From assembly GCF_000177235.2 (NCBI RefSeq), contig NC_014829.1, positions 4,154,001 through 4,218,000 on the forward strand: a stretch of 64,000 nt of DNA. The letters run 5' to 3'. Positions 2 through 62,760 of the stretch are shown here, in pieces. Within the stretch, counting starts at the first letter, position 1. Each line of letters opens with the position of its first letter. Position numbers and translations under genes: made by a program. The notes beneath the pieces were generated by a model, which was given only the letters and a program-made list of their open reading frames with translations, was not told the DNA's origin and ran no database searches. Origin of the DNA: Evansella cellulosilytica DSM 2522. Its GTDB lineage: Bacteria; Bacillota; Bacilli; Bacillales; Salisediminibacteriaceae.

Positions 2-550
2 TTCAGAGATATTACACACCAAAAGACATACGAAGAAAAACTGAGATTTTTAGCTTATCATGACTCATTAACACAACTCGGCAATCGGGTATTGTTTTAC
101 GAAAAGTTTAAAGAACTGGACAAAACGTTGAATTTTAATCAGCAACAATTAGCAGTAATTTTATTAGACTTAGATAGATTTAAGGAAATTAACGACTCAT
201 ATGGGCATTCCGCTGGTGATGCTGTCTTAAAAAATGTTAGTTCGCAAATTTTACAATTACTACCTGAAATTGCCTATGGCTTCCGAATGGGTGGAGATGA
301 ATTTGCCATCTTACTACCAACAACAACACAAAAAGAGCTGCTAGAAATTGTCGAGACCTTAATAGCCAATATACGAAAACCAATACAGATACAAGAAAAA
401 AAGGTAATCGTATCTACAAGTGTCGGAATAAGCCTAGCAAATGAAGATGGCCTTGACCCAGATACACTCTTAAATAACGCAGACAAAGCAATGTACGAAG
501 CAAAAAACAAAGACCGACAAACAGGGACGGTTCTTATTAACCAGGGCTAA
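2..550 (+). CDS. GGDEF diguanylate cyclase, C-terminal part (5' end outside window)
   Basis: The frame is open from base 2, so the gene starts upstream of the window; the visible part begins with a PAS-to-GGDEF linker (RDITHQKTYEEKL) followed by the typical HDSLTQLGNR entry into a GGDEF domain. The active-site motif MGGDEF is intact, so c-di-GMP synthesis from two GTP is likely. No RxxD inhibitory site is seen just upstream of it. The last residues (QTGTVLINQG) are encoded by a palindromic repeat unit that has replaced or extended the original C-terminus. The upstream sensor part cannot be seen. Confident on the domain; the signal is unknown. Confidence 0.9.
   Translation, partial: FRDITHQKTYEEKLRFLAYHDSLTQLGNRVLFYEKFKELDKTLNFNQQQLAVILLDLDRFKEINDSYGHSAGDAVLKNVSSQILQLLPEIAYGFRMGGDEFAILLPTTTQKELLEIVETLIANIRKPIQIQEKKVIVSTSVGISLANEDGLDPDTLLNNADKAMYEAKNKDRQTGTVLINQG
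515..545 (+). repeat. REP-like palindromic unit, GG form, coding for a protein tail
   Basis: First unit of the window-wide family (arms such as GGCTAACG/CGTTAGCC around the loop GGACGGTTC; about 27 bp). This copy has the core AGGGACGGTTCT and lies inside the last codons of the GGDEF gene. Confidence 0.75.
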
Positions 551-555
551 TAGGG

Positions 556-855
556 CTAATAGGGACGGTTCGAGACCGCTGAAAAAGTAGAAATCTTGAT
601 ATTTTATTGTATTAATATTCAATATATCTAATTATAGAAAAGGTTGATGAGACCGGAGCAAGCGAGACTCCTGCGGGAGAAAAGGCAGGGGTGAGACTAC
701 GTAGATGCAAAGCATCAAGGAGGCTCACCAGCCGCCCGCGGAAAGCGAGTTTGCACAGGTCTCATCAACTTCTATATTCAAATAACTTTATATTTATTAG
801 TCTATACTTAAAGTGTAAGTACTTTTTCACTGGTTCCGGACGGTTCTCGTTAGCC
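556..855 (+). repeat. REP-like unit, GG form, split by MITE 1
   Basis: The left part GGCTAATAGGGACGGTTC ends at 571. The right part resumes at 838 with a repeated GGACGGTTC and runs through CTCGTTAGCC to 855. The 9-bp GGACGGTTC is present on both sides of the insertion (563-571 and 838-846). Confidence 0.88.
572..837 (+). mobile_element. MITE-like non-coding element, copy 1 (266 bp)
   Basis: One end is GAGACCGCTGAAAAAGT and the other is ACTTTTTCACTGGTTCC, which form imperfect terminal inverted repeats (13 of 17 match). It is flanked by a 9-bp direct repeat GGACGGTTC. The centre has a GC-rich block (GACTCCTGCGGGAG ... CCGCCCGCGGAAAGCGAG) of a kind often seen between genes in Bacillaceae, inside AT-rich ends. 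No coding frame is evident. Four more copies are at 4195, 27841, 42364 and 60397. Confidence 0.85.
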
Positions 856-864
856 AAATATTGA

Positions 865-900
865 GGCAAATTAGGATAATAGGAACCGTCCCCATTTGCC
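865..900 (-). repeat. REP-like unit, CC form
   Basis: GGCAAAT (865-871) pairs with ATTTGCC (894-900) around AGGAACCGTCCCC; the left arm is lengthened by a few bases. Confidence 0.75.
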
Positions 901-1002
901 AAAGTAGTTCCATGATATAACTGTTGCGCGCCTTCTATGAAAATCCTTTCATAGAAGGCTTTTTAATTTACAACGGTTTTGTTCAGTTGTTTCTCAGGTC
1001 TT

Positions 1003-1050
1003 ACGGTTCTCATTTGCCTGCAGGATGGCAAATGAGAACCGTCCCTCTTC
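1003..1050. repeat. REP-like inverted pair (BIME-like) upstream of the surface protein
   Basis: ACGGTTCTCATTTGCC (1003-1018) and its exact reverse complement (1027-1042) are separated by 8 bases. The pair forms a 16-bp-stem hairpin between the GGDEF gene and the surface-protein gene. Confidence 0.8.
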
Positions 1051-1134
1051 ACTTTTGTTTTTTTAACTAGTTTTTAACCTTAAGTTGTTAAAATGTTTTG
1101 AATGTTAAAAACTAAATAAGATGAGGTGGTAAAA

Positions 1135-3384: not shown

Positions 3385-3402
3385 AAGGCAAGTGGGCAAA
3401 TG

Positions 3403-4170: not shown

Positions 4171-4176
4171 AATTAT

Positions 4177-4487
4177 GGCAAAGAAGATCCGTCCGGAACC
4201 AGTGAAAAAGTACTTACATTTAGAGAGTCCCCTAATAAATATTAGGTTATTAGAATATAGGAGTTGAAGAGACCTATGCAAACTCGCTTTCCGCGGGCGG
4301 CTGGTAAGCCTCCTCTATGCTGCGCATCTGCGGGGGCTTACCTCTGCCTTTATTCCCGCAGGAGTCTCGCTTGCTTCGGTCTCATCAACTCTTTCTATAA
4401 ATCTATAAATTAGGTACTCTGAATAAAAATGCAACAATATATTAATTCTTACACTTTTTCAGCGGTCTCGGTCCGTCCCCGTTAGCC
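4177..4487 (-). repeat. REP-like unit, CC form, split by MITE 2
   Basis: Left part GGCAAAGAAGATCCGTCC (4177-4194), right part GGTCCGTCCCCGTTAGCC (4470-4487). The two 9-mers flanking the MITE differ at one position (GATCCGTCC and GGTCCGTCC). The right part ends 8 bases from the RAYT stop codon. Confidence 0.82.
4195..4469 (-). mobile_element. MITE-like element, copy 2 (275 bp)
   Basis: Same element as copy 1 in the opposite direction: it begins GGAACCAGTGAAAAAGTACTTAC and ends CTTTTTCAGCGGTCTC. The central CTTTCCGCGGGCGGCTGG block and the CCCGCAGGAGTCTCGCTTGC block are present. Confidence 0.85.
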
Positions 4488-4495: not shown

Positions 4496-5272
4496 CTATG
4501 CTTTATAAACTAAGTTTGGAGAGATTCCTAGTATTCTGGATATTTGCTTCTGGGATATTCCATCTATTTTTTTTATATTTCTTAATAGGGTTGTTCTTTT
4601 TTTCTTTGATAGGCTTTTTACTTGTGTTATACCTACAGGACCAAGCACCTTTTCCATTTCTGTTCTTACTGCTGCTTCTGACAGCCTTTTGACATATACA
4701 CTTTCCTCGAGGCATTCGTCATCATTTTTCCGTTCGTTGTATTCTTTAAACAATGCCCGGCCTAGAACTACATCGTCTGAAAACAACCCTAAAATAAATG
4801 CCTCATCAAGTAGTTTTGCCGGATAAACTTTGCCTCCATAGTATTCATTACAGCTACTCCAGCGCCACCATTGGACCTCGTTCACTAACTTTGCCTTCAC
4901 AGGATTTTGATGAATATATCTCACTACTGTACGCATATATTTTTCCGTTTCGACATTCTCACTCCGGAACCTATCTTGAAATAAAGCACCACGCGTACTA
5001 TATTTCCAGTTATAATGAGAGACATAACTAACGCCAATCCGCTTCATCGTTGTTGAAATACTTTCGTTTCCTTCCTTTATAAGTAAGTGCACATGATTAC
5101 TCATTAAGCACCACGCATATACACTTAATCCCATCTCCTCTTTATATTTCAATAATATATCGAGAAATGTATACCTATCTTTATCGTCATGAAAAATCTC
5201 TTGTCCATTCACTCCTCTCCACATAATATGATAAATACCTGTTCTACTTTTTTTACGTGCCTGTCGAGCCAT
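4496..5272 (-). CDS. REP-associated tyrosine transposase (RAYT, Y1_Tnp/IS200-like)
   Basis: A 258-aa Y1 transposase-fold protein. It has the YHIMWRGVNG entry, the metal-binding HUH motif as NHVHLL (about residue 65), and the IHQNPVKAKLV segment with the conserved Tyr region just before it. The C-terminus (about 215-258, ISQKQISRILGISPNLVYKA) is a helix-turn-helix-like domain. The ATG at 5272 follows GTGGTG at a good distance; two GTG codons upstream are less likely. RAYTs in gammaproteobacteria mobilise REP palindromes flanking their gene, and this gene has a CC unit at its 3' side and a GG unit 5' of it, so it is the probable mobiliser of the unit family. It is a lone gene, not inside an insertion sequence. 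Confidence 0.88.
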   Translation of the reverse strand: MARQARKKSRTGIYHIMWRGVNGQEIFHDDKDRYTFLDILLKYKEEMGLSVYAWCLMSNHVHLLIKEGNESISTTMKRIGVSYVSHYNWKYSTRGALFQDRFRSENVETEKYMRTVVRYIHQNPVKAKLVNEVQWWRWSSCNEYYGGKVYPAKLLDEAFILGLFSDDVVLGRALFKEYNERKNDDECLEESVYVKRLSEAAVRTEMEKVLGPVGITQVKSLSKKKRTTLLRNIKKIDGISQKQISRILGISPNLVYKA

Positions 5273-5284
5273 AGCATTCACCAC

Positions 5285-5652: not shown

Positions 5653-5706
5653 TGTAGTGCACCCCAAAAGTTAGAGTGAAAAATCTAACTTTTGGGGTGT
5701 TTATTT

Positions 5707-6102
5707 ATGCCTAAATATAATGATGAATTAAAGATTAAAGTCGTTAAAGAATATCAAGAAGGAATTCTAGGCTTCAGGCGTCTAGCCAAAAAGCATCATA
5801 TTAAATCAAAATCATTGGTTGAAAGATGGGTGAAGATATATGAGAAGTTCGGAGAAGAAGGAATAAAAAGTAATGGGCATAAGGGAACTTATTCTGTTCA
5901 ATTTAAGCTAGATGTATTAAGCTTTATTAAAAGAACAGGAACTTCAGAAACCCAAACAGCCCTCCATTTTGGGTTAGATAGTCCCACTTTAATTGCTTCA
6001 TGGAAAAAATCTTTTCGTGAAGATAAGGCTGAAGCCCTGGATCGAACGAGAGGACGAGGTACCATGTCTGATAGACCTAAGAACAAAACAAGAAAAATAT
6101 AA
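5707..6102 (+). pseudogene. IS orfA (HTH), frameshifted copy
   Basis: Starts at the ATG at 5707 (MPKYNDELK), equivalent to the intact orfA of copy 2. A lost A in the AACAAAAACAAG run near 6085 shifts the frame and stops it at about 131 residues. Two further single-A losses follow, one in GAAAAAGAAC and one in the A6G slippery run (here A5G, 6175-6180). OrfA-OrfB fusion protein can therefore not be made from this copy. Because all three changes are homopolymer deletions, sequencing error must be excluded. Confidence 0.85.
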
Positions 6103-6284
6103 ATGAAAAGAACTTACAAACGAGCAACGGTTAGAGAGGGAAAATGAGCTTCTTCGTTTGGAGGTAGAGTATTTAAAAAGTTGCAAGCTTTTCGGGCAAA
6201 CCCGGAGGATTATCTCGAAAAGCACAAGCAGCGTTATCATTCGAACTCAAAGAAGAGTTCAAATTAAAAGATGTTTTACAAGTA

Positions 6285-7094
6285 GTGGGAATACCAGAAT
6301 CCTCTTACCATTATCATATAAAAGTGATGAAGAAAGACAACCCAGATCAGGCACTTGAAGAGTTAATCCAATCCATCTTCGATGAGCACAACGGGAATTA
6401 TGGTTATCGTCGCATTCATCTAGAATTGAGAAACCAAGGTTACCAAATTAATCACAAGAAGGTTCAACGCATCATGCAAAAATTAGGACTTAAAGTAACT
6501 AAGTTCTGTAGAAAATCACGCAAGTATAGTTCTTACAAAGGTCCTGTGGGCAAAGTAGCCCCAAACCGTATAAATCGCCGTTTTCATACGATTGTATCCC
6601 ATCAAAAACTAACTACAGATATCACAGAATTAAAATGTTTAGGTGGGGCGAAATTATATTTAAATCCAATTATGGACTTGTTTAATAGTGAAATACTTTC
6701 GTTTGGAATCAGCACGCGTCCAAATCTTCAACTTGTGTTAGAACCTTTAGTAGAAACCCTTGAAATCATAAAGGATGCAAAGTATAGAACAACCCTTCAC
6801 TCAGATCAAGGTTGGCATTCTCAACATAAAAATTGGGTGGGACTCCTTAAAGAAAATAACGTTTTTCAGAGTATGTCTAGAAAAGGTAATTGTTTGGATA
6901 ATTCGCCAATGGAGAACTTTTTTGGTCTACTAAAGCAAGAAATATATCACGGAGAGGCTTTGTGTACTTACGAAGAATTAAAAGGAAAAATCGAAGATTA
7001 TATAGATTACTATAATCACAAGCGCATTAAAAAGAAATTAGCTGGGAAGAGTCCGGTTCAATACCGCCTCCACACCAGCCAATTAGTAGCTTAA
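6285..7094 (+). CDS. IS orfB, DDE transposase of copy 1
   Basis: A 269-aa frame from the internal GTG; in the working element it would be entered by -1 frameshifting from orfA. HTH_21-like N-terminus (YGYRRIHLEL), then the rve integrase core with DDE residues in TTDITE, HSDQG and MENFFG. Compared with copy 2 it has Ser for Tyr in the HSDQGWHYQ motif, a position normally aromatic in the group, plus Ile for Thr and a different last residue. With orfA broken, this copy is probably inactive on its own. Confidence 0.88.
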   Translation: MGIPESSYHYHIKVMKKDNPDQALEELIQSIFDEHNGNYGYRRIHLELRNQGYQINHKKVQRIMQKLGLKVTKFCRKSRKYSSYKGPVGKVAPNRINRRFHTIVSHQKLTTDITELKCLGGAKLYLNPIMDLFNSEILSFGISTRPNLQLVLEPLVETLEIIKDAKYRTTLHSDQGWHSQHKNWVGLLKENNVFQSMSRKGNCLDNSPMENFFGLLKQEIYHGEALCTYEELKGKIEDYIDYYNHKRIKKKLAGKSPVQYRLHTSQLVA

Positions 7095-7176
7095 TATAAA
7101 ACTCTAACTTTAAGGGGTCACAACATTCTCATTAGCGAAATAATTTAAGGACATCAAGAAATTTATTTCAAAATTA

Positions 7177-12965: not shown

Positions 12966-12992
12966 GGCTAAGGGGGACGGTTCTCGTTAGCC
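12966..12992 (+). repeat. REP-like unit, GG form
   Basis: GGCTAAGGGGGACGGTTC then TCGTTAGCC; preceded by a partial copy of its left arm (GGGGCTAAG). Confidence 0.82.
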
Positions 12993-13142: not shown

Positions 13143-13168
13143 GGCAAATGAGGTCCGTCCCTCTTAGC
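13143..13168 (-). repeat. REP-like unit, CC form
   Basis: GGCAAATGAGGTCCGTCCC then TCTTAGC, upstream of the ParB-like gene. Confidence 0.82.
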
Positions 13169-13242
13169 ATATTTAACCTTCTCGAATAGGATAAGCTGTT
13201 TGTTTCATAAGTTCTTATGAGGGCAATCAATTAGGGGGAATT

Positions 13243-14076: not shown

Positions 14077-14137
14077 GGCAAATGGGGACGGTTCTCGTTA
14101 GCCGAATTATTGGCAAACGAGAACCGTCCCTCTTAGT
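14077..14137. repeat. REP-like units: GG form then CC form
   Basis: GG unit 14077-14103 after the ParB-like gene; CC unit 14112-14137 before the nitroreductase gene. Partial arm copies (GGCAAATGG at 14069, CCTCTTAGTA after 14137) suggest slippage. Confidence 0.85.
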
Positions 14138-14200
14138 AGTCCTCTTAGTATGATTGTAGTGTACAATAAAACATATTAGATTTTGTAAGGGGGATGGAGA

Positions 14201-19299: not shown

Positions 19300-19360
19300 G
19301 GCTAATGGGGACGGTTCTCATTTGCCAAACTTCGGCGAATAGGGACCTTTCTCATTGGCC
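19300..19360 (+). repeat. Two REP-like units, GG form
   Basis: Complete unit 19300-19326 and a diverged one 19334-19360 with the loop changed to GGGACCTTTC. Confidence 0.8.
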
Positions 19361-19447
19361 GCCCTATAGTACGGACCTATTTAAAGCCTTACATATATTA
19401 ATTGTTACATAATTTTAGATAAACCTAAAGGGGCATAAGGTAAATGC

Positions 19448-19527
19448 GGCAAATTGCTAGTAGGGACGGCTAATAGGGACGGTTCTCACTTGCCAAAACC
19501 GGCAAACAAGGTCCGTCCCTGTTAGTC
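19448..19527. repeat. REP-like units: partial GG, GG, then CC
   Basis: Fragment 19448-19469, whole GG unit 19468-19494, CC unit 19501-19527, then a duplicated fragment TGTCCCTGTTAGTC. Confidence 0.82.
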
Positions 19528-19618
19528 TGTCCCTGTTAGTCTTACAACGAACTTCCAAACATGTTCGTTGTGTGTTTATCAGTCTAGCATAAATAAATCT
19601 AAATTATGATTATTTATC

Positions 19619-19645
19619 GGCTAATGAGAACCGTCCCTTCTTGCC
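19619..19645 (-). repeat. REP-like unit, CC form
   Basis: GGCTAATGAGAACCGTCCC then TTCTTGCC, followed by a second TTCTTGCC. Confidence 0.8.
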
Positions 19646-23953: not shown

Positions 23954-24042
23954 GGCTAATGGGGACGGTTCTCCTTCGCCAAAATTCCTCTAACCGCGGC
24001 AAACATCCGGCTAAAGGCTAATAGGGACGGTTCTTACTTGCC
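23954..24042 (+). repeat. Two REP-like units, GG form
   Basis: Units 23954-23980 and 24016-24042, upstream of the sigma gene; GCGGCAAACATCCGGCTAAA between them looks like degraded arm sequence. Confidence 0.82.
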
Positions 24043-24080
24043 GAATCGACTCCTCAAATAATCCCCCACCAACAAAAGAA

Positions 24081-24121
24081 GGGACAACGAAACAGGTAAA
24101 ACCTGCTCGTTGTCCCTTTTT
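24081..24121 (-). terminator. Terminator hairpin downstream of the YozG-like gene
   Basis: GGGACAACGA (24081-24090) pairs with TCGTTGTCCC (24107-24116), with inner ACAGGT/ACCTG pairing and a T-run on the plus strand. Confidence 0.7.
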
Positions 24122-24140
24122 CAGCCGAAATCTAGAATTT

Positions 24141-24166
24141 GGCTAACGAGAACCGTCCCTGTTGGT
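24141..24166 (-). repeat. REP-like unit, CC form, coding for the regulator tail
   Basis: GGCTAACGAGAACCGTCCC then TGTTGG. It encodes the last residues and stop of the YozG-like protein. Confidence 0.8.
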
Positions 24167-24412
24167 ACTGTTGATGGTGTAGGTTTCGGACGTAGGTTTA
24201 TCATTATTGTCAATATGATATTCTAGTATATCTCCTGGCTGACACTGCAATGTTTTGCAAATAGCCTCTAGTGTCGAAAATCTGATTGCTTTTACTTTTC
24301 CTGTTTTTAAGTTCGATAGATTTACGTGAGATATCCCTACTTTTTCTGCTAATTCATTTAATCTCATTTTTCTATCTGCTAAAACGCGGTCTAAACGAAT
24401 GATAATTGCCAT
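24143..24412 (-). CDS. YozG-like Cro/C1 HTH regulator
   Basis: An 89-aa protein, nearly all helix-turn-helix: RLDRVLADRKMRLNELAEKV, then ISHVNLSNLKTGKVKAIRFS and TLQCQPGDILEY. This is the short regulator usually paired with a DUF2975 membrane protein, as here (14 bases apart). The final TNRDGSR comes from a palindromic unit. It probably regulates its own operon. Confidence 0.82.
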   Translation of the reverse strand: MAIIIRLDRVLADRKMRLNELAEKVGISHVNLSNLKTGKVKAIRFSTLEAICKTLQCQPGDILEYHIDNNDKPTSETYTINSTNRDGSR

Positions 24413-25151: not shown

Positions 25152-25179
25152 GGGATAATGGGGACGGTTCTCACTTGCC
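25152..25179 (+). repeat. REP-like unit, GG form
   Basis: GGGATAATGGGGACGGTTC then TCACTTGCC, upstream of the DUF2975 gene. Confidence 0.8.
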
Positions 25180-25251
25180 AAAGTTCGGTTAGAGGAAAAT
25201 CTCACTTACCTATTACCTATTAACCCATACCTTTATTATGAACTCATTTTT

Positions 25252-25324
25252 GGCTAAGAAGATCCGTCCCTGTTAGCCCGCCCTGTTAACTTCGTTTGGC
25301 TAACGAGATCCGTCCCCATTAGCC
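25252..25324 (-). repeat. Two REP-like units, CC form
   Basis: Units 25252-25278 and 25298-25324, separated by a fragment CGCCCTGTTAAC. Confidence 0.85.
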
Positions 25325-26134: not shown

Positions 26135-26785
26135 ATGATGGTGAAAATAGTAGCATTGTTAGGAGATTTCTGGCACAGTGAGTCCGCTTATAAAGCTGGC
26201 TTAGAGGCAGCGATTAACAGGTTACCGAACAAGGATAACGTCGCGCTTCGCTACATCACAATCGATGAAGTGAGTACCGCTCTCGATGAAAATCCTGATA
26301 TATTTGTGAATGGAAAGATGGATCCACAGACGCCACAGGAAGAAGATGTTCAAGCATGGCTAACTGATGCTGTCGATAAAAAAATAATATCGTACGTAGA
26401 GGATGGTGGAAGTGTGTTGGCCTGGCATTCAGGAATGGCTGGTTATGACCCAGAAAGCCGATATATTCACATGTGCCGTGGGTATTTCGACTATCACCCA
26501 CCAGGTTTGCAGGATGTGATATACATGTTGAAGGAAGGTGAAAAAACTGGTCCGAATACATTTCCATTAAAGGACGAGCAATACTTCGTTCATTGCGATG
26601 TAAATGCAACCGAAGTCGACCTCTGGAGTACAGGAGTAGATGGAGATTCATTAGCGGGCTGGAAGCATCAGTACGGGCACGGAAAAGTATGCTGCTTTTC
26701 ACCAGCCCACACTAAAGAAGCAATGCTTGATAACAACGTTTCCTCATTGTTAGCTGAAAAAATAACATGGCTACTCAAAAAATAG
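26135..26785 (+). CDS. ThuA-like domain protein
   Basis: A 216-aa protein with a class I glutamine amidotransferase-like fold of the ThuA family: KIVALLGDFWHS at the start, GGSVLAWHSGMAGY in the middle and YGHGKVCCFSPAHT near the end. ThuA members are linked to sugar metabolism, often beside dehydrogenases. AAAGGAG precedes the ATG. Substrate unknown. Confidence 0.78.
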   Translation: MMVKIVALLGDFWHSESAYKAGLEAAINRLPNKDNVALRYITIDEVSTALDENPDIFVNGKMDPQTPQEEDVQAWLTDAVDKKIISYVEDGGSVLAWHSGMAGYDPESRYIHMCRGYFDYHPPGLQDVIYMLKEGEKTGPNTFPLKDEQYFVHCDVNATEVDLWSTGVDGDSLAGWKHQYGHGKVCCFSPAHTKEAMLDNNVSSLLAEKITWLLKK

Positions 26786-26811
26786 GTTAAAGGGGACGGT
26801 TCTCATTTGCC
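26785..26811 (+). repeat. REP-like unit, GG form
   Basis: GGTTAAAGGGGACGGTTC then TCATTTGCC, beginning at the ThuA gene stop codon. Confidence 0.82.
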
Positions 26812-26856
26812 AATTCACCTTAAGTTTTCGTCTAAACACGCACATTTTATGTGCTT

Positions 26857-26881
26857 CGCAAATGAGGTCCGTCCCTGTTAG
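26857..26881 (-). repeat. REP-like unit, CC form
   Basis: CGCAAATGAGGTCCGTCCC then TGTTAG, upstream of the next gene. Confidence 0.8.
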
Positions 26882-26921
26882 TATTTTTTTACAGTCTTTT
26901 AATCTGATCGGAGGAAACTAA

Positions 26922-35512: not shown

Positions 35513-35517
35513 TAAAT

Positions 35518-35544
35518 GGCAAACAAGATCCGTCCCCACTTGCC
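35518..35544 (-). repeat. REP-like unit, CC form
   Basis: GGCAAACAAGATCCGTCCCC then ACTTGCC, directly at the end of the 52-bp array. Confidence 0.83.
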
Positions 35545-35681
35545 GAATTGTTCTAGAAAAGTACTATTTCTTTCACGCATACAATGGATATAATAGATTT
35601 AATATCGTTAGAACAAAGAAAATATTAAATTATTTACTTCAACCCGCTAATTGAGGGGGCAAATGCTAATAGGGCTAGTCT

Positions 35682-39916: not shown

Positions 39917-40721
39917 TCAACTGATTTTGAAGGAAAGCTGCTATGTTGGCAAGGAGGACGAGTCGTTGTATTTTTACTGCATAAAAGATCACCTAAAAGA
40001 TAGTGACGATATCTTTATTTCAACTACGAAAAACGTAGACGAAGTGAAAAATATCATTCTGTTCATGCAAGCAAAGGTGAATGTCGATATTAGTGAAGAG
40101 ATTTATTTAAATAGTGAGGATATTGTTCAGCTTTTAATCGATCATTACGATTGCGCGAGAAAAACGGTGATAGATTCAAGCAAGCCTATTGAAATGATAG
40201 AATTAGTTCAGCTCTGGAACGATAATATTGAAAACATTGAACGCATTGTTCTTCATCCTGATAATCAACAGGCGCAAGTTGAGGATGCAATATTAAAAAG
40301 GCTAGAAAAGCATGCAAAGTTTCTTTTTATTAATGCTGCAGTGAAGCTGCCGAAGTGGGCTGAGAATACGTCTATAGAACCATTAACGCTACAGGTTACA
40401 CATAACGGTGTGCTAATCCAAGGCTTGAGTGTGCTAACCGAAGAAGAGCGGGGTAAAATGCTGCAGTTTTATCCAGCAAGTAAGTTTTACGGTAATCATA
40501 GTCTGTTTTTTAGCTTTAAAGATTTCCCACCTTATGAATACTCATTTTCCTGGAACGGCAAACACGTCACCGTTATGCACGTCCACGAATCAGACCATGC
40601 AGCTACCGAAATAAAAAAACAAATGAACATCGGTTACTATTTAACAGAATCAGACCTAAACTTACCAATTAACTCACTCACCGACCTACAAAAATTAAAA
40701 ACCAAAATGCGCCTTGGCTAA
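39900..40721 (+). CDS. Unknown protein (operon gene 3)
   Basis: 273 aa with no signal peptide or membrane helix and no recognised motif. The start overlaps the end of the helicase gene by 17 bases and has no good ribosome binding site of its own, so it is translated by coupling. Residues about 165-235 look beta-rich (LQVTHNGVLIQGLSVLTEEE, SFSWNGKHVTVMHVHESDH). The stop codon TAA is the GGCTAA arm of a palindromic unit. It is probably an accessory subunit of the helicase system. Confidence 0.7.
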   Translation: MGKNHDQLILKESCYVGKEDESLYFYCIKDHLKDSDDIFISTTKNVDEVKNIILFMQAKVNVDISEEIYLNSEDIVQLLIDHYDCARKTVIDSSKPIEMIELVQLWNDNIENIERIVLHPDNQQAQVEDAILKRLEKHAKFLFINAAVKLPKWAENTSIEPLTLQVTHNGVLIQGLSVLTEEERGKMLQFYPASKFYGNHSLFFSFKDFPPYEYSFSWNGKHVTVMHVHESDHAATEIKKQMNIGYYLTESDLNLPINSLTDLQKLKTKMRLG

Positions 40722-40742
40722 TGGGGACGGTTCTTCTTTGCC
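40716..40742 (+). repeat. REP-like unit, GG form, giving the operon stop codon
   Basis: GGCTAATGGGGACGGTTC then TTCTTTGCC. Confidence 0.82.
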
Positions 40743-40769
40743 ATTATAATCATTTACAAATTAAAATAA

Positions 40770-40803
40770 AACCTTGAGAGGCTTTAGCCAATCAAGGTTT
40801 TTT
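40770..40803 (+). terminator. Rho-independent terminator of the three-gene operon
   Basis: AACCTTGA pairs with TCAAGGTT, followed by TTTT. Confidence 0.8.
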
Positions 40804-40952
40804 GTCATATTCTATCCTCTACGATTCGAATAAGAAGTATGACTAAATCAAGGGTTATTCTGTTGATTATAACGTATACTCCAGCAATCCTATTTAGTCT
40901 CCACAATAGTTTATCAGGTAAGCAAGAGTCATCCTACTAGTAGTTGTATATT

Positions 40953-41029
40953 GGCTAATAAGGTCCGTCCCCATTAGCCGTAATTCATGATCATAGTTTT
41001 TTGGCTAACGAGATCCGTCCCTGTTAGCC
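40953..41029 (-). repeat. Two REP-like units, CC form
   Basis: Units 40953-40979 and 41003-41029, directly after the desaturase stop. Confidence 0.85.
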
Positions 41030-49446: not shown

Positions 49447-49500
49447 TGTAGTGCACCCCAAAAGTTAGAGTGAAAAATCTAACTTTTGGGGTGTTTATTT

Positions 49501-50064: not shown

Positions 50065-50081
50065 AAGATGTTTTACAAGTA

Positions 50082-50891
50082 GTGGGAATACCAGAATCCT
50101 CTTACCATTATCATATAAAAGTGATGAAGAAAGACAACCCAGATCAGGCACTTGAAGAGTTAATCCAATCCATCTTCGATGAGCACAACGGGAATTATGG
50201 TTATCGTCGCATTCATCTAGAATTGAGAAACCAAGGTTACCAAATTAATCACAAGAAGGTTCAACGCATCATGCAAAAATTAGGACTTAAAGTAACTAAG
50301 TTCTGTAGAAAATCACGCAAGTATAGTTCTTATAAAGGTCCTGTGGGCAAAGTAGCCCCAAACCGTATAAATCGCCGTTTTCATACGACTGTATCCCATC
50401 AGAAACTAACTACAGATATCACAGAATTAAAATGTTTAGGTGGGGCGAAATTATATTTAAATCCAATTATGGACTTGTTTAATAGTGAAATACTTTCGTT
50501 TGGAATCAGCACGCGTCCAAATCTTCAACTTGTGTTAGAACCTTTAGTAGAAACCCTTGAAATCATAAAGGATGCAAAGTATAGAACAACCCTTCACTCA
50601 GATCAAGGTTGGCATTATCAACATAAAAATTGGGTGGGACTCCTTAAAGAAAATAACGTTTTTCAGAGTATGTCTAGAAAAGGTAATTGTTTGGATAATT
50701 CGCCAATGGAGAACTTTTTTGGTCTACTAAAGCAAGAAATATATCACGGAGAGGCTTTGTGTACTTACGAAGAATTAAAAGGAAAAATCGAAGATTATAT
50801 AGATTACTATAATCACAAGCGCATTAAAAAGAAATTAGCTGGGAAGAGTCCGGTTCAATACCGCCTCCACACCAGCCAATTAGTAGATTAA
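50082..50891 (+). CDS. IS orfB, DDE transposase catalytic subunit
   Basis: 269 aa from the internal GTG; the -1 frame is open back to the slippery site, adding KVASFSGKPGGLSRKAQAAL and further residues to the fusion. HTH_21 segment and rve core with TTDITE, HSDQGWHYQ and MENFFG supplying D, D, E. It integrates the element with a 3-bp duplication. Confidence 0.93.
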   Translation: MGIPESSYHYHIKVMKKDNPDQALEELIQSIFDEHNGNYGYRRIHLELRNQGYQINHKKVQRIMQKLGLKVTKFCRKSRKYSSYKGPVGKVAPNRINRRFHTTVSHQKLTTDITELKCLGGAKLYLNPIMDLFNSEILSFGISTRPNLQLVLEPLVETLEIIKDAKYRTTLHSDQGWHYQHKNWVGLLKENNVFQSMSRKGNCLDNSPMENFFGLLKQEIYHGEALCTYEELKGKIEDYIDYYNHKRIKKKLAGKSPVQYRLHTSQLVD

Positions 50892-50922
50892 TATAAAACT
50901 CTAACTTTAAGGGGTCACAACA

Positions 50923-51013: not shown

Positions 51014-54000
51014 TTATTTGATTTCTGGGTTGAATTGTTTTAGGTTATGCCAGATGCCTCGTGGGAGGTGTAAGAGATTGGCACTAGGGATATTTGTATC
51101 TATCATTCTTTCTTCTAGTAATATATCGTTTTTGAATGTCTTTAGTTCAAGGTGTATGTCTAGATCACGGGCTGGTGTTTTCAAGTCAATGCCGTCCAAT
51201 GTGTCTTGGAATTCAAGTGTGGTGCCTTCGTCTTGATTCAATGCACAGGATAGATTCACATAACGGATAGTTCCATCTGGAAGTTCCTCACCGACATGGA
51301 GATTCAATGATTTGCTTTCTTTCACAATCACCTCCATTTTCTGGAACGCATCGTCAATCAACACTTTGTCACGTGTCGTACTTGTGCAATCTGCGTCTTT
51401 AATTGTAAAAGATCGACCGTTAGGATGGATACTCATATATGTGTAAGTACCTGTATCATTTCCCACGATGGCGCGTTCCTTTACTTTTGCATCGTTACGC
51501 AGCAAAATATAGTTTTCTAACCAAGGACAAACGTAACCAAGATCAGGATCAGAATGCATTTTGCCGTCTTTATATCCAAGAACTTTACCGTCATCTGTTT
51601 CAATAGAGATGCGTGCTGGACTTAATATCAACTCCATGACAAAGGAGCCAAGACCTACCTGCGCATTCACACCGGAAAACGGAAGGCTTACGTCATCAAA
51701 TAGCTGTTTTTTCAAAGTGGCTGTACCGAGAGTAAATCCATTTGCAGATGTATAGTGCAGGTTTGTTGATGAATAGGAATTAGCAAAATGTAGTTTACCA
51801 TTCACCTCCATGAGATCAATCCATAGATCCTCTCTTTCGGGACGATTGTTTTCATAAACGTAAAGTCGAGCGCCGTCCAAACTCTGTTCCGCATCTGGGT
51901 ACACAATACGAGTCGGGACTACGCAATGGCTTTTCATAAATGCTCTACGTATTTCCGGGTCGGAGATAATATCCCACGTCGTACCGGACGGAATGAAGCA
52001 GAGTACACGGGCTCCGCGTTCACCAAGCCCATTTCGAAAGTCCGTTTCGATTTCTCGAATTGTTTGTTCAACTCGATCTACACCAGCACGCCCTTGATTG
52101 GAATAGTGAATAATTAATTCACGGCTTAATACTCGTCCTTGCGTCACATCCAATTCATGCATTAATTCATCGGAAATGTTCGGTGGCTGAGGTGATGGAT
52201 TTGCGCCAACTGTATTAGGCCCTTCACTAAACAAATTCGGAACACCGTTATGAAATCGTTGTAGTGACGTGGCGGACATTCCCGTACAATGCCCGTTATT
52301 TCTTAAAAACCAGCGATAAAAAGCATAGAAAGCTCCTGTTAACACTGGATAACGAACAAATGAAGTAATGATCTCTCTTGATCCGAAAGTTTCCCTGAAC
52401 GTACTTAGGTTTGGATTACCTGCACTGAAGTTATGAAAGGCATATCCGTTTATTGATGGTCTAAAACCACTATCTAACGTAGGTAGTCGTTTCGCTGTAA
52501 ATGAATTACTTTTAAGGCCGTCGGAGTTCTGCACGACAAACGTGACCGTTCCACCGGCATCCTCTCCCATTACTTCTGGCATGTCTATTTCAATTTGGTT
52601 ATTCGATACCCAATTTGCTTCTGCCGGTTCCCCGTTCATCAAAACAGAACTATCTGGATCGAACGACCGGCCCATCAGCGATACTTTGTCACCGGATGCA
52701 AAGCTTTCTACCATTTGACCGTCTCTTTGTAACTCAGTGATGTACGGACGAACGGCAATTTCCATCGTATTCGATTGTTCTCCAAAAGGGTTTTCTACAT
52801 GGAACTGATGTTTTCCATACATCTGGTTAGGTAAAACAAAAGTAAACTGCTTATCATAGTTATAGTCAATATTTATCTGTTGTCCCATCAGTACTACTTC
52901 CATATCAGGAACAAAATGGTGTCCATTGACCGTTATACGCTCTCCTGCAAATGTTTCTGTCGGATTGATCGAAAGAATCCAAGGTTGCTGAAGCTTTCGG
53001 TTCCATTCTTCTTCCGTAATGATAGCAGTGTTGATTTTTCCAGGAGAACCAGGTTGTCCCATTCCTAGATCGCCAGTTCTAATGCCATTCTTCCCAGTAT
53101 TCCCCACACGTTCAGGGCGTGCGGTACAGCCCGTTACAAGGTGACCGGGTTGTCCACCCTTACCACCTTTTCCTGGTATGCCTTGTTCTCCGCCTTGACC
53201 ACCATTTCCAGGTCCATTGCTCAATATATAGGATGATCCTATTAAATTTTGATGCGTATTCATTTGCGTCGCAATAGTAACATCACTACCATTACCGCCT
53301 TTCCCTCCTGGTCCACCTTGTCCACCATTACCTCCATCTCCACCGTGGCCACCGTGACCAACACCACCATTTCTAGCACAAACATATTTACCTACACCAA
53401 AAGCGCCAATCAAGACATTTCTTGAGTCCTGTCCTCGCTGACCATTGCCACCATCGGCCCCTCTACCACCTTGTCCACCCCGGCCACCTTGTTGACCAGG
53501 AAGAATGATATCAGGCATGGCATCAATTTCAAGAGCTAAGATCGTTAATTTCGGTGCATCTTCACCGCGAAAACCTTCTCTACCAGGTCCGCCAGCATTT
53601 CCGTTACCTCCACGTTGTCCACGCGGCCCATGAGTCCTTTGCCGTTCATTTGGGTTAAACGTAGGATCTGCAGGATTTGGAGTTCCATCGCGACCTTTCA
53701 CTCCAGCTTCTCGGTTTTCCAGTGGTGAATAGGTTATAACTGCTCCTTGCCGCGCTTTAATTTTGCGCGCAATAATCCACAAGTGGGATACACTTTCACG
53801 CATAATTGTTATCGTTTTATTATTTAAATCAAGTTCATCCGCAATGAGTACAGATTCCCTCTGTGGCCAAGTAGCAACACTCGCCATCATAAGAAAACTT
53901 GGAACAGCTCCAGAATGTATTTGAATATCCCTACTACTCTTTACGCGCTGTTGAAATTTTGGTGCTGCCATTAAGCCCCCTCTATTAATGGTTAGGTTCT

Positions 54001-54256
54001 GAAAAAGCGATAAATTTTCGGCTTGATTGAGATTATCTACACCGAGGGACTCTAGCTTTGCTTTCGCTTCATCAAGAATTCCTTTAGACGGGACCTCAAA
54101 AATTACTTCATCTAAAAGATCTAAATCTAAATTAATACGTTTCAAAAAACCTTCCGCAATTTCTGGATTCTGCACTCGATTTTTTATGATAGGACTAATA
54201 GGTCTAATCTCTTTGTCACGTATACGTGGATTATTCAAGATTCTACTAGTTGGCAT
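51014..54256 (-). CDS. Large glycine-rich (collagen-like) and IPT/TIG protein, unknown
   Basis: 1080 aa. Residues about 1-190 have no known fold (ASVATWPQRESVLIADELDL region). Residues about 195-400 are a Gly-rich collagen-like block (GPRGQRGGNGNAGGPG, GGRGGQGGRGADGGNG, GGEQGIPGKGGKGGQPG). Two IPT/TIG Ig-like domains follow (about 428-590; NPTETFAGERITVNG, VSLMGRSFDPDS). The last half has NNGHCTGMSATSLQRF, recalling Cys-protease-like GHCxGM motifs, and IDLMEVNGKLHFANSYSS. No signal peptide or membrane helix. AAAGGAG before the ATG. It stands alone between units. A cysteine-peptidase-like effector or large structural protein is possible; neither is proven. Confidence 0.72.
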   Translation of the reverse strand: MPTSRILNNPRIRDKEIRPISPIIKNRVQNPEIAEGFLKRINLDLDLLDEVIFEVPSKGILDEAKAKLESLGVDNLNQAENLSLFQNLTINRGGLMAAPKFQQRVKSSRDIQIHSGAVPSFLMMASVATWPQRESVLIADELDLNNKTITIMRESVSHLWIIARKIKARQGAVITYSPLENREAGVKGRDGTPNPADPTFNPNERQRTHGPRGQRGGNGNAGGPGREGFRGEDAPKLTILALEIDAMPDIILPGQQGGRGGQGGRGADGGNGQRGQDSRNVLIGAFGVGKYVCARNGGVGHGGHGGDGGNGGQGGPGGKGGNGSDVTIATQMNTHQNLIGSSYILSNGPGNGGQGGEQGIPGKGGKGGQPGHLVTGCTARPERVGNTGKNGIRTGDLGMGQPGSPGKINTAIITEEEWNRKLQQPWILSINPTETFAGERITVNGHHFVPDMEVVLMGQQINIDYNYDKQFTFVLPNQMYGKHQFHVENPFGEQSNTMEIAVRPYITELQRDGQMVESFASGDKVSLMGRSFDPDSSVLMNGEPAEANWVSNNQIEIDMPEVMGEDAGGTVTFVVQNSDGLKSNSFTAKRLPTLDSGFRPSINGYAFHNFSAGNPNLSTFRETFGSREIITSFVRYPVLTGAFYAFYRWFLRNNGHCTGMSATSLQRFHNGVPNLFSEGPNTVGANPSPQPPNISDELMHELDVTQGRVLSRELIIHYSNQGRAGVDRVEQTIREIETDFRNGLGERGARVLCFIPSGTTWDIISDPEIRRAFMKSHCVVPTRIVYPDAEQSLDGARLYVYENNRPEREDLWIDLMEVNGKLHFANSYSSTNLHYTSANGFTLGTATLKKQLFDDVSLPFSGVNAQVGLGSFVMELILSPARISIETDDGKVLGYKDGKMHSDPDLGYVCPWLENYILLRNDAKVKERAIVGNDTGTYTYMSIHPNGRSFTIKDADCTSTTRDKVLIDDAFQKMEVIVKESKSLNLHVGEELPDGTIRYVNLSCALNQDEGTTLEFQDTLDGIDLKTPARDLDIHLELKTFKNDILLEERMIDTNIPSANLLHLPRGIWHNLKQFNPEIK

Positions 54257-54464: not shown

Positions 54465-54546
54465 GGCGAATGGGGACGGTTCTCATTTGCCTGATAAGGC
54501 AAACGAGAACCGTCCCCGTTAGCTTCTGTTAGCTGTCCCTGTTAGC
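54465..54546. repeat. REP-like tight inverted pair plus fragment
   Basis: GG unit 54465-54491, linker TGATAA, CC unit 54498-54523, then fragments TCTGTTAGC and TGTCCCTGTTAGCC. Confidence 0.85.
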
Positions 54547-57770: not shown

Positions 57771-57863
57771 GGCGAATGGGGACGGTTCTCGTTGGGCGAA
57801 TGGGGACGGTTCTGTTTGCCAAAAAAGGATAGCTGCGGTTAACAGGGACGGTTCTCTGTTGCC
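57771..57863 (+). repeat. Three REP-like units, GG form
   Basis: Units 57771-57794 (truncated), 57795-57820 and 57837-57863 in the same direction after the P450 gene. The last two are part of the 165-bp segment repeated at 60671. Confidence 0.84.
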
Positions 57864-57966
57864 ATCTAGTAGTAGATTCCCATTCTAGGAAATCTCGATT
57901 TTTACGTTGAATGAAAGAGAACGAAAAGAACGGTTCCGACTTTTAGGAACCGTTCTCTTCATTTAG
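57801..57966 (+). repeat. 165-bp direct repeat, left copy
   Basis: From the second palindromic unit through AGATTCCCATTCTAGGAAAT and the terminator hairpin to ATTTAG. The matching copy lies at 60671-60836, after the chemotaxis gene. Confidence 0.8.
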
Positions 57967-57975
57967 TTTTTTTAT
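57928..57975 (+). terminator. Rho-independent terminator downstream of P450
   Basis: GAACGGTTCC (57928-57937) and GGAACCGTTC (57946-57955) pair; TTTTTTT follows at about 57967. Confidence 0.8.
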
Positions 57976-58159
57976 AATTTTGCACCGTGGCACCAGAACT
58001 TAAGCATATATAATTGCATCAATAGAGTTATAACCTACTACACTAAAATCATATTGAACGCATCTTGAATAAACAAGTATGAAGACTCCTCTACTAACCA
58101 CCCACCGGGGTCCGATAGAATAACTCAAGTCAGAGTCTATACTAATATATTACAGATCC

Positions 58160-58186
58160 GGCTAACTAGATCCGTCCCCATTAGCC
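58160..58186 (-). repeat. REP-like unit, CC form
   Basis: GGCTAACTAGATCCGTCCCC then ATTAGCC, upstream of the chemotaxis gene. Confidence 0.84.
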
Positions 58187-60372: not shown

Positions 60373-60378
60373 GACTAT

Positions 60379-60688
60379 GGCGAATGGGGACGGTTCGAGA
60401 CCGCTGAAAAAGTGTAAAAATTAATATATTGTTGCATTATTATTCAAAGTACCTAATTTATAAATTTATAGAAAGAGTTGAAGAGACCGGAGCAAACGAG
60501 ACTCCTGCGGGAGTAAAGGCAGAGGTAAGACCCCGCAGATGCGCAGCATTGAGGAGGCTTACCAGCCGCCCGCGGAAAGCGAGTTTGCATAGGTCTCTTT
60601 AACTCCTATATACTAATAACCTTATATTTATTAGGGGCTCACTAAAAGCAAGTTCTTTTTCACTGGTTACGGACGGTTCTCGTTTGCC
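60379..60688 (+). repeat. REP-like unit, GG form, split by MITE 5
   Basis: Left GGCGAATGGGGACGGTTC (60379-60396); right GGACGGTTCTCGTTTGCC (60671-60688). Exact 9-bp duplication. Confidence 0.88.
60397..60670 (+). mobile_element. MITE-like element, copy 5 (274 bp)
   Basis: GAGACCGCTGAAAAAGT at the left, CTTTTTCACTGGTTAC at the right. Short form, same direction as copy 1. Confidence 0.85.
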
Positions 60689-61057: not shown

Positions 61058-61084
61058 GGCTAACGAGGTCCGTCCCTGTTAGCC
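61058..61084 (-). repeat. REP-like unit, CC form
   Basis: GGCTAACGAGGTCCGTCCC then TGTTAGCC, after the gene at 61089. Confidence 0.84.
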
Positions 61085-61088
61085 TTCT

Positions 61089-61772
61089 TTAGTTTATTTT
61101 CTTTCTCTGTATTAAAATGCCGTCTTTCCTTCTTTCAAGGAACCATGAATTCCCATACTGGACGCGTTCTTCTGTTATGTTGTTTTTCTTACGCTTATAA
61201 GAGTTGTAAATGATAGCACTAAATCCCGTTTTTCTTCCCATCTTTTTTTGAAATTTTCTTTTTCTTTTCTTTTCATTTTTTTCATAATCCCTATCTTCTG
61301 CAACATCCTCCATCCAATCCTTACCAATAAAAATCCAAATGAGTGCTAACACGACATGGACAACAATGAGGTAAATTGCGAAGAAAATGGCATAAAAAAT
61401 AGGGTAATCCATAGTTGCTGGCAATTCGTATGTATTCATATTTACTAGTCCCCAAGAGAAAACATACGAGCAAAGAATGAAAAAACTAAAATAAGTAACG
61501 AGATTCATAGGGATCCTTATAAAATTATTACTAACTTTCTTCCAAACAATTAAACCGACGATAAACAATAAAATAAATAAGATAAAGTAGCCCCGCACAA
61601 ATGAAAAATACATCACGAGAACTTGGTCTGTTGCTTCCCTTAACGGAGCATCAATATAGTTTGCGTAAAAATAAATAATTATTGCAAATACAACTAAAGG
61701 CGTCATAGAAATTGGAGCATAGGCGTAATAACCCCCACTTCCATCTGGTCTAATATCCCACCAATCACTCAT
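61089..61772 (-). CDS. Multi-helix membrane protein, unknown
   Basis: 227 aa with four membrane helices in the first 150 residues (FAIIIYFYANYID, FILLFIVGLIVW, FFILCSYVFSWGLV, IFFAIYLIVVHVVLALIWIF) and a very basic cytoplasmic tail (KKRKRKFQKKMGRKTG). GGAGG before the ATG. No family recognised. Confidence 0.7.
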   Translation of the reverse strand: MSDWWDIRPDGSGGYYAYAPISMTPLVVFAIIIYFYANYIDAPLREATDQVLVMYFSFVRGYFILFILLFIVGLIVWKKVSNNFIRIPMNLVTYFSFFILCSYVFSWGLVNMNTYELPATMDYPIFYAIFFAIYLIVVHVVLALIWIFIGKDWMEDVAEDRDYEKNEKKRKRKFQKKMGRKTGFSAIIYNSYKRKKNNITEERVQYGNSWFLERRKDGILIQRKKIN

Positions 61773-61949
61773 AGAAAACCTCCTTCATATTAATAAACAT
61801 ATTATTCTGAATTGTTTTATTATACTTCTTTATCTAAAATATTTGAAATTAAATATACTACAGATATATTTTCATATACACCTTTTACGGCTATTTCATT
61901 ACTGTTAATAAACACTCTTTCGTAAAAAATCCTTTGATAATTGGCAAAA

Positions 61950-61976
61950 GGCTAACGAGGTCCGTCCCTGTTAGCC
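61950..61976 (-). repeat. REP-like unit, CC form, giving a stop codon
   Basis: GGCTAACGAGGTCCGTCCC then TGTTAGCC; its GGCTAA encodes the last Gly and stop of the next gene. Confidence 0.84.
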
Positions 61977-62453
61977 AATCTTTTTCAAGCCATGGTTCAC
62001 TACCTTACTGATCAAACCCGGAATCACTAATAAAACGATCGATATGATAGAAAGAAAGAATCCAATTTTCAAGTTAGTTGCGTACAAATGGGTAATAAAA
62101 TACATATTGCCTAACATCAAAATTAGTATGATGATTATACTTGCCTTATGTGTTTTTCCTTTCTTCATCTGATAAAAAACAGTTACTGCTAAAATTGGAA
62201 TAAGTATTGCTGCTGCGCCGAAGACAACAGATAAAATGATATTAGTATTAATCCAAAACCCATAAAGAGAATAGTAATTTACTAATGAAGCCAATTCGCC
62301 AGTAAATAGCAAATTGATGCAATTTCGCACATCGTCAAATAGAGAATGTCTCTGACCACTATATTCCTCAGCATACCAAGGTAAAAAAAATGTAATGATG
62401 ACTAAAAATAATGAAAATGTTTTAATAGACGAATCCTTCACCTGTAATTCCAT
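61971..62453 (-). CDS. Four-helix membrane protein, unknown
   Basis: 160 aa with four membrane helices (about 12-28, 55-85, 98-120, 125-148). AGGAGAGG before the ATG. No motif recognised. Co-directional with the previous membrane protein but a CC unit separates them. Confidence 0.65.
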   Translation of the reverse strand: MELQVKDSSIKTFSLFLVIITFFLPWYAEEYSGQRHSLFDDVRNCINLLFTGELASLVNYYSLYGFWINTNIILSVVFGAAAILIPILAVTVFYQMKKGKTHKASIIIILILMLGNMYFITHLYATNLKIGFFLSIISIVLLVIPGLISKVVNHGLKKIG

Positions 62454-62700
62454 AGTAATTTCCTCTCCTAATATTCTGATTAAAATCGTTTTGAAAAAGG
62501 TTATTGGCTAAGTAGTCATGGAGATAGACATTTACCATCGAAATTAGCCTAACTAATCATATCATAATAGTTAAGAAGATCCTTTCACTTTTTTTGTGTT
62601 TTATCTTAGTAACGGCCGAACAAGCACAACTCTATATAGCCCGGAAAACACCTCAAAATCGATTCTTAGCACCGACTAATATAATATTCAGAGACAATCC

Positions 62701-62727
62701 GGCTAACGAGGTCCGTCCCTATTAGCC
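62701..62727 (-). repeat. REP-like unit, CC form
   Basis: GGCTAACGAGGTCCGTCCC then TATTAGCC, upstream of the DUF3231 gene. Confidence 0.84.
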
Positions 62728-62733
62728 AAAAAT

Positions 62734-62760
62734 AAGACAGTGTACCTGTCCCTGTGTCTT
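62734..62760 (-). repeat. Family B palindrome, CC-type
   Basis: AAGACAGTG and TGTGTCTT around TACCTGTCCC; side by side with a main-family unit. Confidence 0.75.

What the first reader, a model, noticed from the sequence alone, without database searches (positions are those of the whole stretch)
515..62760. Strict GG-to-CC order of palindromic units in every intergenic gap
Seen: reading the + strand, gaps that contain both forms show all GG-form units first and then all CC-form units, in tandem, convergent and divergent gaps alike (for example 19300 GG, 19334 GG, 19468 GG, 19501 CC, 19619 CC; also 12966/13143, 14077/14112, 25152/25252, 40716/40953, 57771/58160). Each gene or operon is thus bracketed CC-gene-GG, and no unit lies inside likely operons (yhgD-yhgE, SDR-ThuA, the helicase operon, ytr-like operon). 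Only fragments at 1003 and 15897 break the order; a few gaps (33459, 48399) have CC units only. Family B follows the same rule. Inference: the units were placed or kept as inverted pairs around transcription units, so polarity is selected or built in by the mobiliser.
Basis: partly seen in the sequence, partly recalled or inferred. Interest (0 to 1): 0.9.

Follow-up and report, generated by a model that had tools for sequence, protein, structure and literature searches.

The report
Two-armed hairpin repeats between bacterial genes
Hundreds of short hairpin-forming DNA repeats sit between genes in this Bacillus-like bacterium in a fixed left-right order, most simply because they are the two arms of a miniature element linked to a companion transposase gene, whose arms multiply in place without swapping sides.

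Summary
The order is real. In the window, 15 of 16 gaps holding both forms run GG then CC (17 GC junctions, 1 CG). Over 684 kb of the same genome it is 62:3; in unit-rich stretches of three relatives it is 30:1, 30:2 and 36:0. Best explanation: a REPIN-like element, two inverted palindromic arms, GG-spacer-CC, so the order belongs to the element, not the gap. Arms multiply by tandem duplication in place (GGGC/GGGGC, GGCC/GCCC between two close species), and some 'single' units keep a decayed partner on the predicted side. The core GGGACGGTTCTC stays while arms differ between genomes. It tracks one subfamily of REP-associated tyrosine transposase: 19 of 28 core-rich genomes carry it, against 11 of 221 others; one lies in the window (4496-5284). 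Unexplained: isolated units in tandem gaps of this genome are CC in gene sense 60:7 (10:6 in two relatives), and some far pairs enclose terminator-like hairpins. New variant of a known kind.

The parts
4496..5284 (-). RAYT-like Y1 transposase, 262 aa, weak C-terminal HTH match; member of the subfamily that tracks the units
   Evidence: PF01797 E 2.5e-14, HTH_23 below its cut-off; NCBIfam REP_Tyr_transpos E 3.7e-21 but 75.5 bits, below the cut-off of 80; PDB 4er8 TnpArep E 2e-5; 53% and 62% identical to the G015 and G027 proteins
4461..4487 (-). unit about 8 nt past the transposase stop (GG in its mRNA sense), split by the MITE
12966..12992 (+). GG unit, left member of a far pair
13143..13169 (-). 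CC unit, right member of the far pair
14077..14138 (.). close head-to-head doublet: GG 14077-14103, CC 14112-14138, about 8 nt after a stop codon
17474..17578 (.). GG 17474, GG 17516, CC 17552 (doublet plus an extra GG arm)
19300..19645 (.). GG 19300, GG 19334 (degenerate), GG 19468, CC 19501, CC 19619; 19468-19527 is a close doublet
23954..24167 (.). GG 23954, GG 24016, CC 24141
25153..25324 (.). GG 25153, CC 25252, CC 25298
26785..26883 (.). GG 26785, CC 26857
40716..41029 (.). GG 40716 at a stop codon, CC 40953, CC 41003 at the facing stop codon; terminator-like hairpin between (by eye)
54465..54524 (.). close doublet GG 54465, CC 54498
57771..58186 (.). GG 57771, 57795, 57837 and CC 58160

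Best explanation
The units are the two arms of a REPIN-like miniature element: GG arm, short spacer, CC arm, head to head, so that the pair can fold into one long hairpin. A gap that received one such element reads GG then CC on either strand whatever the genes do. Afterwards an arm can multiply by tandem duplication in place (GG to GGGG, CC to CCC), decay, or be split by an IS3 element or a MITE that uses the core as target. None of these steps puts CC before GG, so G...GC...C arises without selection on order. Elements are found mainly right after stop codons and almost never inside operons. Shown: doublet anatomy and order in four genomes, partner remnants beside part of the isolated units, tandem gain or loss of arms between two species, association with a RAYT subfamily. 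Inferred: that this RAYT spreads (or once spread) the element, and that placement at stops reflects tolerated or preferred insertion.
For: Close pairs are GC 33, CG 0 in own (50 nt or less), GC 19 and 22 with CG 0 in G015 and G027, GC 16 with CG 0 in G042 (60 nt or less). In many close doublets the inner arms are complementary over about 19-20 nt. In G042 some spacers are shared: spacer pairs at 70% identity or more are 19 of 78 (49-53 nt class; shuffled 3, left flank 3) and 8 of 78 (85-94 nt class; shuffled 0, flanks 1 and 1). Isolated units show an inverted partner at score 11 or more on the predicted side in 17 of 136, 15 of 31 and 6 of 22, against 1, 1 and 0 on the opposite side; direct copies on the predicted side are 7, 6 and 3. 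Between two species 80-90% identical over the aligned segments, gaps differ by single arms: GGC/GC, GGC/GGGC, GGGC/GGGGC, GGCC/GCCC, with near-identical 40-42 nt tandem copies in one species. Arms differ between genomes while the core stays. RAYT subfamily: 19 of 28 genomes with 10 or more cores against 11 of 221 others, Fisher p 1.8e-14; a core (up to 2 mismatches) lies within 150 nt 3' of the gene in 23 of 30 loci. A named Clostridiaceae genome (LADT01000086) has a 56% identical RAYT with a GG core just upstream and a CC core just downstream, the layout of a parent element.
Against: (1) In own genome only 17 of 136 isolated units show a partner at score 11 or more, so decay is not shown for most. 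(2) Isolated units away from stops in tandem gaps still have polarity, CC in sense 60:7 in own, 7:4 in G015, 3:2 in G027, and in own single-unit gaps their distance from the stop does not cluster where a second arm would lie (2 of 38 between 25 and 60 nt). (3) Far pairs keep the order (29 GC, 3 CG in own), and several enclose what look like native terminators (by eye), which one insertion of a doublet does not explain. (4) Nine of the 28 core-rich genomes lack the RAYT subfamily at the 340-bit level. (5) Around 30 RAYT loci CG junctions are not absent: 2 against 25 GC within 60 nt, 5 against 10 at 61-300 nt (genes between not excluded). (6) In G042 the right flank of the shorter doublet class is also raised (14 of 78). 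(7) No whole-doublet gain or loss was seen in about 37 kb aligned between G031 and G076, so recent movement is not shown.
Confidence: 0.8

Rival explanations
1. Directional RNA punctuation. Selection sets the polarity of each unit: the GG strand makes a strong RNA hairpin (G.U pairs) and is kept where transcripts leave a gene, at the stop codon; the CC strand (A.C mismatches, weak) is the form tolerated upstream of starts.
For: RNA folding of typed consensuses: GG form -10.1, CC form -5.1 kcal/mol (own); -11.6/-6.6 and -17.9/-12.9 for G015- and G027-type arms. Within 20 nt of stops the unit is GG in sense 84:7, 34:1, 29:0, 29:0; with no close neighbour 43:4, 19:0, 9:0. Within 40 nt upstream of starts it is CC in sense 24:1 in own. 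Isolated units follow gene direction, not replication strand (co-oriented tandem gaps 62:11, counter-oriented 2:8).
Against: A doublet set at a stop gives the at-stop result by geometry. Past the stop of the RAYT gene itself the first unit is GG 13, CC 10. AY variants fold well on both strands (-14.0 and -12.6 for the AC variant). Away from stops the polarity is clear only in own genome (60:7; G015 and G027 10:6). Divergent gaps keep the order although no stop codon faces them.
Confidence: 0.3
2. Cassettes. Each transcription unit is a mobile segment bracketed CC-gene-GG, exchanged through the inverted units.
For: The clusters lie in gene content not shared in order with 400 kb of G004. Tandem duplications of 3.5 kb (84%) and 0.5 kb (97%) have a unit at the left boundary of each copy.
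Against: No excess of CC-gene-GG over independence. Terminator-like hairpins lie between the brackets rather than inside the proposed cassette (by eye). The dispersed self-matches of 400 nt or more that I listed are 164-bp-array and 52-bp-repeat copies, MITE-containing gaps, two gene-length pairs of 69-70% identity without units at their ends, and one 99% pair with a transposase-like ORF (my reading); of 38 dispersed matches with units at all four ends only part were listed and read.
Confidence: 0.08
3. Strand-biased insertion: isolated units enter the lagging-strand template, as IS200/IS605 elements do, and co-orientation of genes gives the apparent rule.
For: Free single units are CC 30, GG 5 in the + leading region and GG 16, CC 4 in the - leading region. 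The lagging-strand habit of IS200/IS605 is stated in the listed abstract of PMC6006769.
Against: In counter-oriented tandem gaps polarity follows the genes (8 of 10), and convergent plus divergent gaps show no clear bias (29:19, p = 0.19). It cannot produce order within a gap.
Confidence: 0.05
4. Hairpin-directed insertion: each unit goes in on a fixed side of an existing DNA hairpin (terminator or older unit), which is symmetric between strands and so gives GG left and CC right.
For: Hairpins within 200 nt lie on the predicted side 61:24, 38:13, 10:6. Extra arms beside a close doublet mostly lie outside it with the right polarity: tokens DC 8, GD 4, against CD 1 and one DCG, with a few longer strings.
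Against: The bias is weak, absent for terminator-like hairpins in divergent gaps (6:7 and 3:3), and the distance to the hairpin is not fixed.
Confidence: 0.12

Closest known systems
REPINs (REP doublets forming hairpins), Bertels and Rainey 2011, PMC3116915 (passages read)
   Same: Two inverted palindromic arms with a spacer, extragenic, high copy, linked RAYT gene; singlets seen there as remnants of doublets
   Different: Other hosts, constant central core GGGACGGTTCTC, frequent tandem arms of the same polarity, RAYT of about 260 aa
GTAG and CGTC tagged REPs, Di Nocera 2013, PMC3733652 (abstract, passages, section 15 and part 1 of section 17 read)
   Same: Head-to-head dimers predominate, units lie close to 3' ends of ORFs (under 20 bp), termini often supply stop codons, G-T pairs in stems
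   Different: No terminal GTAG or CGTC tag here; the conserved motif is central; same-polarity close pairs are common (19 CC and 8 GG against 33 GC) where the paper calls such dimers absent, under-represented or negligible
E. coli TnpA-REP (PDB 4er8)
   Same: Only solved relative of the window RAYT found by sequence, E 2e-5 over residues 43-156
   Different: 165-residue chain without the C-terminal part; recognises GTAG REPs (passages of PMC6006769)
IS elements that target REPs (ISPpu9, abstract start in a search listing, PMC8450116; IS1397, recalled)
   Same: All 6 IS3-family copies found in the 684 kb lie in unit cores
   Different: Here a 266-357 nt MITE-like element also uses one fixed 9-bp site of the core

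Membership tests
REPIN | inverted doublets of palindromic units far above chance | tested here: met
   close GC 33, CG 0 in own; repeated in three further genomes
REPIN | doublet, with spacer, is the propagating unit | tested here: inconclusive
   shared spacers in G042 above shuffled control, but the right flank of the 49-53 nt class is also raised; partner remnants beside part of the isolated units; between close species single arms differ, no doublet gain seen
REPIN | RAYT in the same genome, flanked by the repeats | tested here: met
   19 of 28 core-rich genomes; core within 150 nt 3' in 23 of 30 loci
REPIN | doublets more conserved than singlets | not tested
   conservation of doublets and singlets not compared
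REPIN | excision intermediates | not testable with these tools
   no read data held
GTAG/CGTC REP superfamilies | unpaired terminal GTAG or CGTC tag at one end | tested here: not met
   near the 5' end GTAG in 9, GTGG in 9, CGTC in 1 of 299 units; 3' side, either strand, 9, 10 and 23
RAYT (TnpA-REP) proteins | match to the Y1 transposase family | tested here: met
   PF01797 over cut-off
RAYT (TnpA-REP) proteins | match to the curated REP-transposase model over its cut-off | tested here: inconclusive
   NF047646: window 75.5 and G015 72.5 bits, below 80; G027 85.9, above
RAYT (TnpA-REP) proteins | cuts and joins single-stranded REP DNA | not testable with these tools
   needs purified protein
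Gene cassettes bracketed by repeats | bracket tied to the gene | tested here: not met
   no CC-gene-GG association
Described RNA family (Rfam 15) | match at gathering score in the window | tested here: not met
   0 matches in 64 kb

The most novel reading that the evidence does not exclude
In these bacteria a transposon-derived palindrome has become directional punctuation for transcription units: strand asymmetry from G.U pairing makes a strong RNA hairpin only when transcription leaves a gene and a weak one when it enters, so the host keeps GG at stops and CC in leaders, independently of the doublet anatomy.
Probability: 0.2. Interest if true: 0.75.

Novelty: new variant of a known kind. Interest (0 to 1): 0.5.

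Why it matters
It adds to the REPIN-RAYT theme a repeat with a constant 12-nt core and arms that differ between genomes yet stay palindromic, present at 10 or more core copies in 28 of 249 sampled genomes of the window's order. My five paper searches brought up no account of it. It gives a simple rule for why palindromic repeats keep order in a gap (inverted doublet plus tandem duplication of arms), testable in any REP-bearing genome, and isolates a residue, the gene-linked polarity of isolated units, that may show host selection on RNA structure. The same core is the landing site of an IS3 element and a MITE-like element.

Tried and rejected
Replication-strand bias as the cause of polarity: weakened by counter-oriented gaps. 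Cassettes bracketed CC-gene-GG: no association across genes; the comparison with G004 showed that gene order is not shared and gave no empty sites. Two core variants (GGGACGGTT and GGGACGGAY) as separate 3' and 5' types: not cleanly separated; at-stop sense units are 60 TT and 24 AY, free CC-sense units 92 TT and 7 AY. Intrinsic-terminator role of single units: the ten bases after at-stop units in own genome are 29% T, not T-rich (output partly cut); in G015 they are 40% T. First partner test with the strict profile gave a weak contrast (32 against 13, 18 and 24 of 140 at 12 bits) and was replaced by softer scoring. Plasmid search with the RAYT protein: 26 records, all below 60% identity. The genus search around G027 returned one genome with no match to an own-type pattern. 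Whole-doublet differences between G031 and G076: none found. In that call a few smaller differences were not followed up: single units with 2 mismatches present in one species only, and two CC units at the end of an aligned segment.
Full report
WHAT WAS CHECKED. The window is 4,154,001-4,218,000 of a 4.68-Mb single-contig genome. The 27-nt unit (GG form GGCTAATGGGGACGGTTCTCATTTGCC; the CC form is its reverse complement) is concentrated in two clusters, about 1.12-1.49 Mb and 4.13-4.35 Mb, with a few cores elsewhere. I took 400 kb and 284 kb around them. The profile finds 299 units at 10 bits or more and none in the reversed sequence. Genes were called with my own hexamer model.

ORDER. In the window 16 gaps hold both forms; 17 junctions run GG to CC and 1 runs CC to GG; 0 of 20,000 shuffles match. 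In both clusters together: 164 gaps, 60 mixed, 62 GC and 3 CG. In unit-rich stretches the same holds in G015 (another genus of the family, 30:1), G027 (another family, 30:2) and G042 (another family, 36:0). Where several doublets lie in one gap the sequence can read GCGC, so the rule is per element rather than per gap: searches list such gaps, and around 30 RAYT loci 7 CG junctions occur against 35 GC within 300 nt, 2 of the 7 within 60 nt (genes between not excluded).

THE ELEMENT. Close pairs are GG-spacer-CC; in many the inner arms are complementary. The arms differ between genomes (own GGCTAATA..CGTTTGCC, G015 TGTAAAGTG..CACGTTGCA, G027 GGCAGAATG..CATGCTTCC by commonest base), while the core GGGACGGTTCTC stays (more examples). 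In G042 some spacers are shared among copies, although in the shorter class the right flank is also raised. Isolated units keep an inverted partner on the predicted side in 17 of 136, 15 of 31 and 6 of 22, against 1, 1 and 0 on the other side; for most isolated units in own genome no partner is detectable.

TANDEM GROWTH OF ARMS. G031 and G076 are 80-90% identical over the aligned segments (90% in the segment) and share most units there. Four clear differences are single arms: GGC against GC, GGC against GGGC, GGGC against GGGGC, and GGCC against GCCC, with near-identical 40-42 nt tandem copies in G076. A few weaker differences were not followed. Duplicating an arm in place keeps G...GC...C. 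This accounts for gaps such as GCC, GGC and GGGC and for same-polarity close pairs in own genome (19 CC, 8 GG).

POSITION. Units sit at stop codons in GG sense: 84:7 in own within 20 nt, 34:1 and 29:0, 29:0. They avoid tandem gaps under 30 nt (2 of 159 in three genomes) and occupy 8 of 11 convergent gaps of that size. Closeness to 3' ends and supply of stop codons are known for REPs (PMC3733652, section 15). A doublet placed at a stop always shows its GG arm first, so at-stop polarity needs no selection. Isolated units away from stops in tandem gaps, however, are CC in sense 60:7 in own (50 and 7 gaps), 7:4 in G015 and 3:2 in G027, following gene direction rather than replication. In own single-unit gaps these are not spaced like second arms. 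I leave this open; selection against the stronger RNA hairpin of the GG strand (-10.1 against -5.1 kcal/mol) is the obvious candidate.

THE TRANSPOSASE. The window carries a Y1 transposase gene at 4496-5284, closest solved relative TnpA-REP, with a MITE-split unit about 8 nt past its stop. A three-sequence model splits hits in 249 genomes of the order into 30 genomes at 348 bits or more and the rest at 297 or less. Core counts of 10 or more occur in 28 genomes, 19 of them with this subfamily, against 11 of the other 221 (p 1.8e-14); without the three model genomes it is 16 of 25. A core with up to 2 mismatches lies within 150 nt 3' of the gene in 23 of 30 loci, first unit GG 13 and CC 10. In several loci GG lies upstream and CC right after the stop (for example G146, G198, G247), and a named Clostridiaceae record with a 56% identical protein shows the same. 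This suggests a GG-RAYT-CC parent; that is inference.

TERMINATORS AND FAR PAIRS. Own genome has 29 far GC pairs; 9 have repetitive interiors, some from the MITE. Others, and most of the 11 in G015, enclose hairpins that look like terminators by eye. Hairpins lie more often on the spacer side of a unit (61:24, 38:13, 10:6). One insertion of a compact doublet does not explain these pairs.

KNOWN OR NEW. The architecture is that of REPINs (PMC3116915, passages) and head-to-head REP dimers (PMC3733652). A terminal GTAG or CGTC tag is missing, so I do not file the units in those superfamilies. Searches of the held papers brought up no description of this repeat; most subscription journals are not held.

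SCORES. Best explanation 0.8; interest 0.5; new variant of a known kind.

Noticed in passing
window 5653-7125 and about 49447-50922: Two nearly identical IS3-family elements inserted in unit cores; a 3-bp TTC duplication was read for the first copy. All 6 copies found in the 684 kb lie in unit cores.
   Followed up: partly
window 572-837, 4195-4469, 27841-28189, 42364-42713, 60397-60670: A 266-357 nt MITE-like element; 30 full copies in 684 kb, 28 with unit-like sequence on both flanks, 20 with a perfect 9-bp duplication in the same nine bases of the core. Highly site-specific.
   Followed up: partly
L030 6394-7250 (genome about 4304394-4305250): Tandem array of about 164 bp, each copy holding one GG unit and a stretch rich in GCGATTT; related arrays near 4312177 and 4322278.
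   Followed up: no
window 34697-35626: 52-bp tandem repeat array; similar stretches (66-70%) near 4117192 and 4365800 of the genome.
   Followed up: no
window 53156-53497: 9-nt periodic repeat inside the 1080-aa ORF 51014-54256 (-), suggesting a collagen-like triplet region.
   Followed up: no
genome 1171074-1178117 (L007): 3.5-kb tandem duplication, 84% identical, with a CC unit at the left boundary of each copy.
   Followed up: no
genome 1458907-1460688 and 1473394-1475177 (L021, L022): 1.78-kb pair, 99% identical, with a 490-aa ORF that looks like a transposase (my reading, no family search).
   Followed up: partly
genome clusters 1.12-1.49 Mb and 4.13-4.35 Mb: Units are concentrated in two regions of opposite GC skew and gene orientation; cause unknown.
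   Followed up: no
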